Source: Salinimonas chungwhensis DSM 16280
GTDB lineage: Bacteria; Pseudomonadota; Gammaproteobacteria; Enterobacterales; Alteromonadaceae
Length of the DNA: 64,000 bases
Direction of reading: 5' to 3'
Assembly: GCF_000378185.1 (NCBI RefSeq)
Contig: NZ_KB899376.1
Span: 834,357 to 898,356, forward strand
Shown here: piece by piece, positions 4,061-30,583 of the stretch
Layout: each line of letters begins with the position of its first letter
How positions within the stretch are numbered: position 1 is the stretch's first letter
Notes under the pieces: generated by a model
Seen by the model: only the letters and a program-made list of their open reading frames with translations
The model's database searches: none
What the model was told of the DNA's origin: nothing
Program-made: the position numbers and the translations under genes

Positions 4061-4231
4061 TTATTCGCCAACACGCTTGGCAATCCAGTTCGCACGTTCA
4101 TTGGTTTTAAACTCACCAACTGGTGCTGGTTGCTCGTAACGTTCAAACCAGTTGAAAACCGGCTGACTCTGCAAGTATTGCTGGAAACGACTGGCAGGTT
4201 GTGGCTGGCGTTTAGGTTTTAACAGTTTCAT
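4061..4231 (-). CDS. Small orphan protein, 56 residues, unknown function
   Basis: Reads MKLLKPKRQPQPASRF at the start and ends ERANWIAKRVGE. An AAGGAAT Shine-Dalgarno site lies 8 bases before the ATG and a strong terminator follows the stop, so it is very likely expressed on its own. The protein is basic at the N-terminus, rich in Gln/Pro and aromatics, with no signal peptide or membrane segment. I do not recognise a family. Intergenic gaps of about 300 bases lie on both sides. A small cytosolic RNA- or protein-binding role is possible but not shown. Confidence 0.7.
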   Translation of the reverse strand: MKLLKPKRQPQPASRFQQYLQSQPVFNWFERYEQPAPVGEFKTNERANWIAKRVGE

Positions 4232-4469
4232 GATACCTATTCCTTACGATGTTCAGTGCTGCTCGACGAGACGATATGCTGTCTTGATTACAAAGATATA
4301 TTCAAAGATTGAACCAACTTATACGAAAGTAGTAAATTTCTACGTAGCCCAGTTACACCGCGGCATACAGAAAAAGTTGTAGGCCAGAGAGTGAATCCTG
4401 CAAAAAGGCGGGTATATAACTCTTTCCCAACCCAGGGAAATCTTTACACTTGAAAATGACGATTTGATG

Positions 4470-28465: not shown

Positions 28466-28542
28466 TGGTCGGTGTGAGAGGATTTGAACCTCCGACCCCT
28501 GACACCCCATGACAGTGCGCTACCAAGCTGCGCCACACACCG
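28466..28542 (-). tRNA. proL: tRNA-Pro (anticodon GGG)
   Basis: 77 nt including an encoded CCA. The acceptor stem CGGTGTG / CACACCG, D-arm GGCGCAGCTTGGTAGCGC, anticodon loop ATGGGGT (anticodon GGG), and T-arm GGAGGTTCAAATCCTC are all present. It closely matches E. coli ProL, including the T-T opposition in the anticodon stem. It reads codons CCC/CCU. A short open frame across it on the same strand is a shadow. Confidence 0.97.
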
Positions 28543-28879: not shown

Positions 28880-29080
28880 ATGCAAAATTTAAGTGTACAG
28901 GATATTAAATATGTGTCGGGCGGATGCGCCGAATATTGCTGGGGCGATATGAGTTGGGGTGGTTTTGCAGGCAGCGTCGTCGGTGGTGCAATTGGCGGTA
29001 TGAGCGGAGGGCCTTTTGGCGCTTCACTGGGTGCTATTGGCGGTGGAGCAAGTTATTTCTTCACTAAAGCGTGGGAATAA
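28880..29080 (+). CDS. Class II microcin/bacteriocin-like peptide A with double-glycine leader
   Basis: 66 residues. Residues 1-15 (MQNLSVQDIKYVSGG) form a double-glycine leader of the type in the microcin V precursor (same length, hydrophobic residues at -12, -7 and -4, GG at -2/-1). The predicted mature peptide of 51 residues begins CAEYC, a possible disulfide pair, and has 15 glycines in GxxxG spacing through a membrane-length stretch, ending YFFTKAWE. AAAGGA lies before the ATG. Such peptides are cleaved and exported by peptidase-containing ABC transporters and kill related bacteria by membrane action. Not a named microcin; activity is inferred. Confidence 0.8.
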   Translation: MQNLSVQDIKYVSGGCAEYCWGDMSWGGFAGSVVGGAIGGMSGGPFGASLGAIGGGASYFFTKAWE

Positions 29081-29129
29081 ACCATTCTACCGGGCACAGT
29101 GCGTGCCCTTCTCATTAAAGGACCGTCAA

Positions 29130-29345
29130 ATGCCCATTTTCAAAACACTTATTTTTGTGAGCTTGTTCTTTGTATGCGTTGGACTTGGCGGGTCACTCAT
29201 TTATGCAGTAAATCTGTTTTTACCTGCGATAAGCGGCTGGCCCTTATTTTTCTGCTATTGCACAATCGGCGCTATAGTTGGCGCGGGAATTGTCCACCTG
29301 TGTATTAAACCCGCGCAGGCCATCACAACATCAAAGTCTACATAG
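29130..29345 (+). CDS. Small two-helix membrane protein, candidate immunity protein for peptide A
   Basis: 71 residues. Two hydrophobic helices (about residues 6-30 and 38-60) and a short polar tail (KPAQAITTSKST). AAAGGACC precedes this ATG; a longer frame upstream overlaps peptide A and has no ribosome site. It starts 49 bases after peptide A on the same strand. Small two- or three-helix membrane proteins next to class II bacteriocin genes are typically self-immunity factors, so this role is inferred from position and shape only. No sequence family is recognised. Confidence 0.65.
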   Translation: MPIFKTLIFVSLFFVCVGLGGSLIYAVNLFLPAISGWPLFFCYCTIGAIVGAGIVHLCIKPAQAITTSKST

Positions 29346-29366
29346 CCGGCTGTTTTAAATACAGCA

Positions 29367-29957
29367 CTAGTTGCCAGAATCAGAGCTGATACGGCTGGCA
29401 TCAGCCCCCGCCTGCCCTTTATATTTTGCATCTAGCCGCGCGTTATAGGGTTTCTCGGCTGGCTGTGATAACAGCTCAAAGCTCAGTGCGCCTATTTTCA
29501 TTAAGGGCCGCAAGGCCAGGGGGAGTTTCCCACTGTTGAAAAACTCCAGCACGATATTGCCCGACCAGCCTGGATCAATACGGTGCGCGGTAACATGTAC
29601 CATTAATCCAAGGCGGGCCAGTGATGAGCGACCATCCAGCCAGCCGACAATATTGTCAGGCAGAGTGACAGACTCATGCGTAATCGCCAGTGCTAATTCT
29701 CCCGGATGAAGAAAAAAAGCTTTACCTTCAGGCAGCGCTATTTCATCACTCATCACAGAGTTAAGCGCTTCCTCTACCTGTGCTTTTGGACCACTTAAAT
29801 CAATATAGGGAGCCTGGTGATCTTCAAAAACCCGAAACTTATTGCCCAGTCTGATATCAACCGTTACCCCGCTGATTTGGTCATAATCAGGTGCCGGCGA
29901 AATAGCGATTTTTCCTTCCTGAAGATAAGTAAAAATATCGCGGTCACACAATCGCAT
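29367..29957 (-). CDS. dcd: dCTP deaminase
   Basis: 196 residues, near the E. coli length (193). It deaminates dCTP to dUTP, feeding dTMP synthesis. Motifs: [15 protein letters not shown] at the start, [22 protein letters not shown], the active-site region [23 protein letters not shown] with the catalytic Glu in [10 protein letters not shown]. It is normally near mrp and metG; here the two bacteriocin-like pairs lie on either side. The gene may be read through from mrp and peptide B, since all are on the same strand with short gaps. Confidence 0.96.
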
Positions 29958-29989
29958 AAAATAAACTCTGAACGTCGGTAATACCGCTA

Positions 29990-30241
29990 TTATGCGTGCT
30001 CTGCCTCACCGCGACAAGGACTTGGGGCAGCTTCTTTACCGCTCTGGGTATTAACCTGTAGCTGACATTCTATTGTTTCCAGTTTTCTTATTACCGTATG
30101 TAACAGCACACTAAGCAACGCGACTGCCCCAAACGCCAGGTAAACAACAAACATCATGAAATTGCCGGAAAGGTGATAGATAAACACCACGGTCAGAATG
30201 AAAAGTATATAAACAAATTTAAAGACGGCTGTATTTTGCAT
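29990..30241 (-). CDS. Small two-helix membrane protein, candidate immunity protein for peptide B
   Basis: 83 residues with two hydrophobic helices (about 7-24 and 28-50), then a cytosolic tail with a short amphipathic helix ([14 protein letters not shown]) and a polar end. AAGGATAGG precedes the ATG. It starts 61 bases after peptide B and ends 32 bases before dcd. By position it mirrors the 29130-29345 gene, but the two share no clear sequence similarity. An immunity role is inferred; a generic small membrane protein cannot be excluded. Confidence 0.65.
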
Positions 30242-30302
30242 AGGTACCTATCCTTGTAAATTGATGAACGCCTGACGGTCAGACGTCCAACAGGGTCGTT
30301 AT

Positions 30303-30476
30303 CTATGAAAGCGCATAGTGACCAACCGCTAGCATGGCGCCACCAACTGCCAATCCAAACACGGCAGTGGCGGGACCGCCAGCAAAGCCCTGACCGATAA
30401 CAGCCAGTCCTCCGGAATCCCAATCTAATCTGCCGCCACTAATCTCGTTTAATTCTTCTATATCTAAAGGTTTCAT
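30303..30476 (-). CDS. Class II microcin/bacteriocin-like peptide B with double-glycine leader
   Basis: 57 residues. The leader MKPLDIEELNEISGG is 15 residues and very like that of microcin V (MRTLTLNELDSVSGG). The predicted 42-residue mature part starts RLDWDSGG, is Gly/Ala/Val-rich, carries GGPATAVFG and ends GHYALS; it has no Cys. Peptide A shares a GGP-x-x-A-x-x-G pattern in its mature part, so the two could be partners of a two-peptide system (inference). AAGGGAC seven bases before this ATG sets the start; an in-frame ATG further upstream is not supported. Confidence 0.8.
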   Translation of the reverse strand: MKPLDIEELNEISGGRLDWDSGGLAVIGQGFAGGPATAVFGLAVGGAMLAVGHYALS

Positions 30477-30487
30477 AAATGTCCCTT

Positions 30488-30525
30488 TATAGTGATACCG
30501 CGCATCAGTTCGCGATATCACTATA
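30488..30525 (-). promoter_or_regulatory. Hairpin abutting the Shine-Dalgarno site of peptide B
   Basis: TATAGTGATA pairs with TATCACTATA; after one mismatch, CGCG pairs with CGCG, leaving an 8-nt loop. The lower edge touches the AAGGGAC ribosome site. There is no T-run, so it is not a simple terminator of mrp. It could tune translation of peptide B or mark a processing site between mrp and the peptide; both are inference. Confidence 0.55.
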
Positions 30526-30583
30526 ATAGGAAAAAGCGACAAATGTTCGCTGGCCATTAGAATAGTTTTCATCTGTACAACGG

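What the first reader, a model, noticed from the sequence alone, without database searches (positions are those of the whole stretch)
28880..30476. Two double-glycine-leader peptides with mirror-image candidate immunity genes flanking dcd
Peptide A (plus) and peptide B (minus) both have 15-residue leaders ending SGG. Each is followed within about 60 bases by an unrelated 70-85 residue two-helix membrane protein. The two modules converge on the housekeeping gene dcd. Both mature parts are Gly-rich and share a GGPxxAxxG pattern, so they may act as a two-peptide bacteriocin. I know of no named microcin with this layout. The leader resemblance to microcin V is direct; killing activity and immunity are inference.
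Basis: partly seen in the sequence, partly recalled or inferred. Interest (0 to 1): 0.85.

Follow-up and report, generated by a model that had tools for sequence, protein, structure and literature searches.

The report
Two scattered microcin-type toxin–immunity gene pairs
A marine Alteromonas carries two small gene pairs beside a housekeeping gene, each looking like a secreted antibacterial peptide plus its own protective membrane protein, and relatives that lack the peptide but keep the protective gene suggest these bacteria fight one another with them.

Summary
Peptide A (28880-29080+) and peptide B (30303-30476-) have 15-residue double-glycine leaders; a small two-helix membrane ORF follows each within 62 bp. 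On another contig the genome (genus Alteromonas) holds an adjacent CvaA-like adaptor and CvaB-like C39-ABC exporter with the peptidase Cys/His/Asp, plus at least seven other double-glycine leaders elsewhere. Strong matches to the A model occur in 17 of 59 genus genomes, to the B model in 9; 21 of these 26 loci have a two-helix ORF just downstream (0 of 330 control frame ends). Divergence fits purifying selection. Immunity-type genes stand without the toxin: ImmB in G268 at a site where sister G219 has B plus ImmB, ImmA in G232 at the dcd site, ImmB in G100; in G266 B has a stop while ImmB is open. G278 shows the reverse.

The two-peptide idea is not supported: A and B co-occur as chance predicts (3 of 59, p=0.71), each has its own downstream gene, and their shared GGPxxAxxG is in 1 of 8 A rows. 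Best reading: two independent class II microcin-like modules sharing a remote exporter. Killing and protection were not tested. New members of a known kind.

The parts
28880..29080 (+). Peptide A: 66 aa precursor, 15-residue double-glycine leader, 51-residue Gly/Ala-rich mature part beginning CAEYCWGD
   Evidence: homologues; mature mass and charge
29130..29345 (+). ImmA: 71 aa, two hydrophobic helices, candidate immunity protein for A
   Evidence: 46% identical homologue standing alone in G232 at the same site
29367..29957 (-). dcd (dCTP deaminase), housekeeping neighbour, not part of the modules
29990..30241 (-). ImmB: 83 aa, two-helix hairpin, candidate immunity protein for B
   Evidence: AlphaFold model of two helices, mean pLDDT 75.9
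30303..30476 (-). Peptide B: 57 aa precursor, 15-residue double-glycine leader, 42-residue mature part
30482..30531 (.). Imperfect inverted repeat (21-nt arms, 86% complementary) overlapping the ribosome-binding site of peptide B; function unknown, no such repeat upstream of the six B homologues examined
28469..28542 (-). tRNA-Pro (GGG) on the A side of dcd; found there in 31 of 60 dcd loci within the stretches fetched

Best explanation
A-ImmA and B-ImmB are two independent class II microcin-like modules. Each precursor carries a double-glycine leader that the genome's CvaB-like C39-ABC exporter, with its CvaA-like adaptor on another contig, would recognise, cut after GG and export (inferred from the leader and the conserved peptidase residues). 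The mature 51- and 42-residue Gly/Ala-rich peptides would act on the inner membrane of related bacteria (inferred by analogy). The two-helix protein encoded just downstream would protect the producer in its own inner membrane (inferred; supported by such genes standing where the peptide is missing). The modules are small chromosomal cassettes that come and go between housekeeping genes. Their meeting at dcd in this strain looks like a coincidence of insertion sites, not one bipartite toxin.
For: Leaders and PF10439/TIGR01847 matches. Adaptor and C39-ABC genes side by side in the same genome, with C39 Cys, His and Asp aligned to the solved exporter 4ry2. A model in 17 of 59 and B model in 9 of 59 genus genomes at E <= 5.4e-20 and E <= 6.8e-26; 4 and 6 of these were seeds of the models. 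21 of 26 loci have a two-helix ORF within 100 bp against 0 of 330. The seven ImmB-type proteins at B loci form one blastp cluster. Fit with purifying selection: close A pair G284/G266 dN 0.03, dS 0.81; B own/G168 pN 0.18, pS 0.86. Immunity-type gene without toxin: G268 against the full cassette of G219, G232 ImmA, G100 ImmB, G266 B with a stop in the leader and ImmB open; a leader scan of these four stretches found none, while it rang in two intact controls. A and B independent: both in 3 of 59, 2.6 expected, p = 0.71.
Against: No activity, transcript or peptide data. The exporter is in 57 of 59 genus genomes (counted from the rows), so its presence here carries little weight. G276 has A with a two-helix ORF downstream, but its best exporter match (E 1.2e-47) covers residues 190-696 only, without the C39 domain; its two weaker matches were not listed. 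In G278 B is open but ImmB carries a stop. In close A pairs the downstream protein diverges faster (dN 0.27-0.30) than the peptide (0.03-0.08), which a strict toxin-immunity match would not predict. Window ImmA is outside the ten-member cluster found at most other A loci. Both peptides score just below the PF10439 cut-off, and mature B (4.0 kDa) is smaller than the roughly 5-10 kDa given for class II microcins.
Confidence: 0.75

Rival explanations
1. A and B are the two halves of one two-peptide (class IIb) bacteriocin.
For: Both mature parts are Gly-rich. A B homologue (G219) passes the cut-off of TIGR03949, a class IIb family (22.3 vs 21.5 bits); own B scores 16.0. The two genes sit 1.2 kb apart.
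Against: Both families occur together in 3 of 59 genomes, as chance predicts. In G250 they are on different contigs and in G266 B has a stop. B without A is at the mrp-dcd site in four relatives. Each has its own immunity-like gene. GGPxxAxxG is in 1 of 8 A rows.
Confidence: 0.07
2. The peptides are secreted signals (pheromones) rather than toxins, and the membrane proteins are receptors or regulators.
For: Exporters of this kind also serve quorum-signalling peptides (PMC6363468, start of abstract in the listing, for Gram-positive bacteria). The peptide is more conserved than its partner in close A pairs.
Against: Partners are 57-83 aa two-helix proteins; the Pfam and NCBIfam scans of window ImmA and ImmB and the Pfam scan of three homologues gave nothing over a cut-off. 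No regulator was seen among the immediate neighbours (dcd, mrp, tRNA-Pro), though the wider surroundings were not scanned by family. Immunity-type genes kept without the peptide fit protection better.
Confidence: 0.12
3. The modules are intracellular membrane toxin-antitoxin pairs or addiction cassettes that are never exported.
For: Small hydrophobic peptide next to a second small gene; G276 has A without an evident C39 exporter.
Against: All 8 rows of the A alignment and all 8 of the B alignment carry a leader ending GG, which an intracellular toxin would not need; a further B copy, G286, ends AG.
Confidence: 0.05

Closest known systems
Class IIa microcins, e.g. microcin V (CvaC/Cvi with CvaA/CvaB/TolC; the names Cvi and CvaC partly recalled)
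   Same: Double-glycine leader of 15 residues, small Gly-rich peptide, small membrane protein gene next to it, CvaA/CvaB-like exporter in the genome; A matches PF17508 MccV weakly (E 0.011) and another own peptide does so at E 6.2e-5, both under the cut-off.
   Different: No other sequence likeness shown; no exporter genes at the modules; modules scattered; genus Alteromonas; no activity shown.
McbC/McbI of Moraxella catarrhalis (PMC2761928; abstract and passages seen)
   Same: Double-glycine peptide followed by a 74 aa immunity gene outside Enterobacterales; there, cloned mcbI protected a sensitive strain.
   Different: mcbA-mcbB exporter genes are in the same operon and mcbI overlaps mcbC; the paper found no significant relatives of McbC or McbI. 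I did not compare the sequences.
Lactobin A/cerein 7B class IIb bacteriocins (TIGR03949)
   Same: B homologue of G219 scores over the curated cut-off (22.3 vs 21.5).
   Different: Own B (16.0) and own A (8.5) are below it. Recalled: these are Gram-positive two-peptide systems; here one peptide per module with its own candidate immunity gene.

Membership tests
Class II microcin | 15-18 residue leader ending in GG or GA | tested here: met
   Both leaders 15 residues ending GG; definition from passages of PMC10233263
Class II microcin | C39-peptidase ABC transporter with catalytic Cys/His/Asp, in the same genome | tested here: met
   L006 10020-12176+, 718 aa, PF03412 E 2.4e-34; the residues align with 4ry2 (which residues are catalytic in 4ry2 is recalled, the triad itself is)
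Class II microcin | Membrane fusion protein (CvaA-like) | tested here: met
   L006 8767-10020+, HlyD_3 E 4.3e-15
Class II microcin | TolC outer-membrane channel | not tested
   No search made
Class II microcin | Cognate immunity protein, 51-216 aa with transmembrane helices, near the peptide | tested here: inconclusive
   ORFs of the right size, place and hydrophobicity (criteria); protection not testable here
Class II microcin | Mature peptide about 5-10 kDa | tested here: inconclusive
   A 4.99 kDa, B 4.03 kDa; range
Class II microcin | Export genes clustered with the peptide gene (usual layout) | tested here: not met
   Exporter on contig C16, modules on C1. Usual, not obligatory: cinful asks for a PCAT within the source assembly
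Class II microcin | Antibacterial activity | not testable with these tools
   -
Two-peptide (class IIb) bacteriocin | Two peptides inherited together, commonly with one immunity gene (recalled) | tested here: not met
   3 of 59 with both, p 0.71; separate downstream genes
PF10439 Bacteriocin_IIc | Score over curated cut-off 27.1 bits | tested here: not met
   A 25.4, B 26.0 bits
TIGR03949 lactobin A/cerein 7B | Score over curated cut-off 21.5 bits | tested here: not met
   Own B 16.0, own A 8.5; G219 homologue 22.3

The most novel reading that the evidence does not exclude
Alteromonas runs a dispersed arsenal: one near-universal CvaAB-type exporter serves many unlinked chromosomal peptide cassettes (at least nine leaders in this genome), which are gained and lost singly at sites between housekeeping genes, while immunity genes are kept as shields after the toxin has gone. 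This would be a toxin-immunity arms race on the chromosome of a marine genus, with two unnamed peptide families (GGCAEYCWGD-type A and DWxSGG-type B).
Probability: 0.55. Interest if true: 0.65.

Novelty: new member of a known kind. Interest (0 to 1): 0.5.

Why it matters
PMC9746304 (2022; passages) counts ten verified class II microcins, with E. coli and Klebsiella as the known sources; a 2026 paper reports validated ones in Serratia (PMC13101503, listing only), and Moraxella McbC stands apart. These modules offer two sequence families in Alteromonas, a shared exporter, and natural pairs in which the immunity-type gene stands with and without the toxin, so that competition can be tested directly in marine strains. 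Orphan immunity is described on E. coli plasmids (PMC12546727, passages), where toxin loss versus immunity gain is posed as a question; the G219/G268 pair is a case at a housekeeping-gene site.

Tried and rejected
Two-peptide bacteriocin: tested by co-occurrence and motif conservation, not supported. Second C39 match (L002): an ORF of 228 aa without room for an ABC domain, beside very repetitive proteins; it looks like an amyloid (Fap-like) operon rather than an exporter (name recalled, not scanned). Plasmid or phage carriage: no match of A or B in plasmids or of B in phages at E <= 1; A was not searched in phages. Shared regulatory repeat: no repeat like the one before B stands before six B homologues or before A. 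AlphaFold of peptide A was too weak to use (mean pLDDT 48.5); ImmB gave only a two-helix hairpin, so no fold search was run. Lone ORF of G068 in the mrp-dcd gap: possible ImmB remnant, but only 10.7 bits against the ImmB model and no hit in the genome search at E <= 0.05, so not counted as an orphan. Literature: the listings of searches (37 empty; 42 and 68 capped at 20) showed no paper on microcins of Alteromonas by title; of papers that hold both words, PMC8749424 names a microcin only in its reference list and PMC2866480 names Alteromonas once, as a genus of animal-associated bacteria. PMC10456417 lists bacteriocin-like clusters in Pseudoalteromonas, none named as this kind in the passages seen. 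Subscription journals are mostly not held.

Full report
OBSERVATION. Peptide A (66 aa) and its 71 aa partner run on the plus strand towards the end of dcd. Peptide B (57 aa) and its 83 aa partner run on the minus strand in the order mrp, B, ImmB, dcd, with 32 bp between ImmB and dcd. Pfam's double-glycine bacteriocin model PF10439 finds both just below its cut-off, and TIGR01847 finds B's leader above its cut-off. Mature A (51 aa) is 4,987 Da with charge about -2; mature B (42 aa) is 4,032 Da with charge about -1; both are 43% Gly+Ala.

EXPORTER AND OTHER PEPTIDES. The genome has two PF03412 matches. One is a 718 aa C39-ABC protein next to a 417 aa HlyD-type adaptor on contig C16. It aligns with 4ry2 over residues 12-696, and the Cys, His and Asp of the peptidase match (their catalytic role in 4ry2 is recalled). 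The other lies in what looks like an amyloid-type operon. A leader profile finds nine places in this genome at E < 0.01, seven of which were in its seed. Beyond A and B they lie on C7 (four), C1:519936, C1:520115 and C9:108260. Some stand as tandem pairs: C7:127667/127884, C1:519936/520115, and C9 with a weaker second one.

RELATIVES. Named records with A are Alteromonas facilis, A. aquimaris, A. profundi, A. lipotrueae, A. antoniana and A. halophila, an uncultured Glaciecola and a Thalassotalea (8 loci; own record may be left out by the tool). In the held genus (59 genomes) the A model matches 17 genomes at E <= 5.4e-20 (20 at E <= 0.05), four of them seeds. The B model matches nine at E <= 6.8e-26 (24 at E <= 0.05), six of them seeds. 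At A loci the start of the mature part is the conserved piece: C-A-E/K-x-C-W-G in the eight aligned rows, with E for A or Y for C in some further copies; the C-terminal tails vary.

PAIRING. In 14 of 17 A loci and 7 of 9 B loci a 55-90 aa ORF with two hydrophobic stretches and a ribosome-binding-site-like motif starts within 100 bp. The five misses are L172, L173 and L179 for A and, for B, L187, where ImmB has a stop, and L188, where an ImmB match exists but my filter failed. L172 does have a 62 aa ORF there that failed the filter. Controls gave 0 of 330 ends of long open frames and 15 of 4000 random positions. The seven ImmB-type proteins form one blastp cluster; ImmA-type proteins fall into one cluster of ten, with the window's own and three others apart.

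THE SITE. I read 60 dcd loci covering 59 of 59 genus genomes, one of them twice. In four of the 60 mrp was not found in the stretch. B plus ImmB lies between mrp and dcd in five: own, G168, G257, G278 (ImmB with a stop) and G285. G068 has a lone 65 aa two-helix ORF there whose kinship to ImmB is weak (10.7 bits). In the other 50 loci with mrp the gap is 72-292 bp in 47 and about 1.05-1.1 kb with other ORFs in three (L121, L125, L126). ImmA's only full-length relative in the genus is in G232, alone, between dcd and tRNA-Pro; G257 has a partial one elsewhere. A dcd+mrp tree puts own near G168/G257/G278 (B at the site), with own's sisters G255/G267 lacking it, and G285 apart (I did not print branch supports for that clade). 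This suggests loss within the clade and either a second arrival or more losses.

IMMUNITY WITHOUT TOXIN. G268 and G219 share a site between genes that read as ppc and mdh (names from reading the sequence). The DNA aligns at 93% and 87% on either side of the stretch that holds B in G219; G268 has 43 bases where G219 has 244, and ImmB (63 aa) is open in G268. Whether B was lost in G268 is inferred, not shown. G100 has an ImmB homologue with no B beside it, though it has weaker B relatives elsewhere. In G266 the B frame has a stop in the leader, while ImmB is open. G232 keeps ImmA only, and nothing of A aligns there. A leader scan of the stretches around these four genes and the G068 ORF found no intact leader and rang in both intact controls. 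The reverse state, B open and ImmB with a stop, occurs once, in G278. Divergence of B, A and ImmB fits purifying selection, with most synonymous distances saturated.

TWO-PEPTIDE TEST. Genomes with strong matches to both are own, G250 and G266: 3 of 59 where 2.6 are expected (Fisher p = 0.71). In G250 they lie on different contigs and in G266 B has a stop. GGPxxAxxG occurs in 1 of 8 A rows and 5 of 8 B rows. So A and B look like separate weapons.

AGAINST THE READING. Nothing here shows killing. The exporter is in 57 of 59 genomes (counted from the rows with single or split near-full-length matches; G247 and G276 are the two without), so its presence says little. G276 carries A. In close A pairs the partner changes faster than the peptide. 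The inverted repeat over B's ribosome-binding site was not found before the six homologues examined.

LITERATURE. I saw passages of PMC9746304, PMC2761928, PMC10233263, PMC12546727, PMC8749424, PMC2866480 and PMC10456417, and the outline and abstract of PMC11494933; the rest only as listings. None of these, and no title in the listings of searches, describes microcins of Alteromonas; listings 42 and 68 were capped.

VERDICT. New members of a known kind (class II microcin-like), with a dispersed layout and good comparative evidence for immunity.

Noticed in passing
L140, L145, L147, L148, L150, L151, L152 (ORFs ending about 4140-4270 on the strand read) and L138:4004-4177: Short double-glycine-leader peptides beside the CvaB-like exporter share a C-terminal motif like PPVYxTxAIGEDGGxLP and do not look Gly-rich. 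7 of 31 exporter loci matched the motif pattern, the own exporter did not. Two were scanned, one in Pfam and both in NCBIfam, without a match at E <= 0.1.
   Followed up: partly
L007:10667-11511 (own contig C7): Tandem double-glycine peptides (68 and 71 aa), the first matching PF17508 microcin V at E 6.2e-5 (below cut-off), followed by a 124 aa ORF with a weak EbsA match; a near-perfect 26-nt inverted repeat stands before the first.
   Followed up: partly
L128 (G057 contig C227, 19.7 kb): Array of double-glycine peptides: eight leader matches over 8 bits, five of them strong with near-identical MRELNxCE leaders, including a B relative.
   Followed up: partly
window 30482-30531: Imperfect palindrome overlapping the ribosome-binding site of peptide B, possible operator or translation switch, not found before the B homologues examined.
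   Followed up: partly
L238:1492-1665 and 2076-2294 (G257 contig C15): Partial ImmA relative (57 aa ORF, match to residues 2-47) near a divergently placed 72 aa double-glycine peptide.
   Followed up: no
L002 (own C1:192111-195515): C39-peptidase protein of 228 aa beside very Ser/Asn/Asp-repetitive proteins, resembling a functional amyloid operon (Fap-like name recalled).
   Followed up: no
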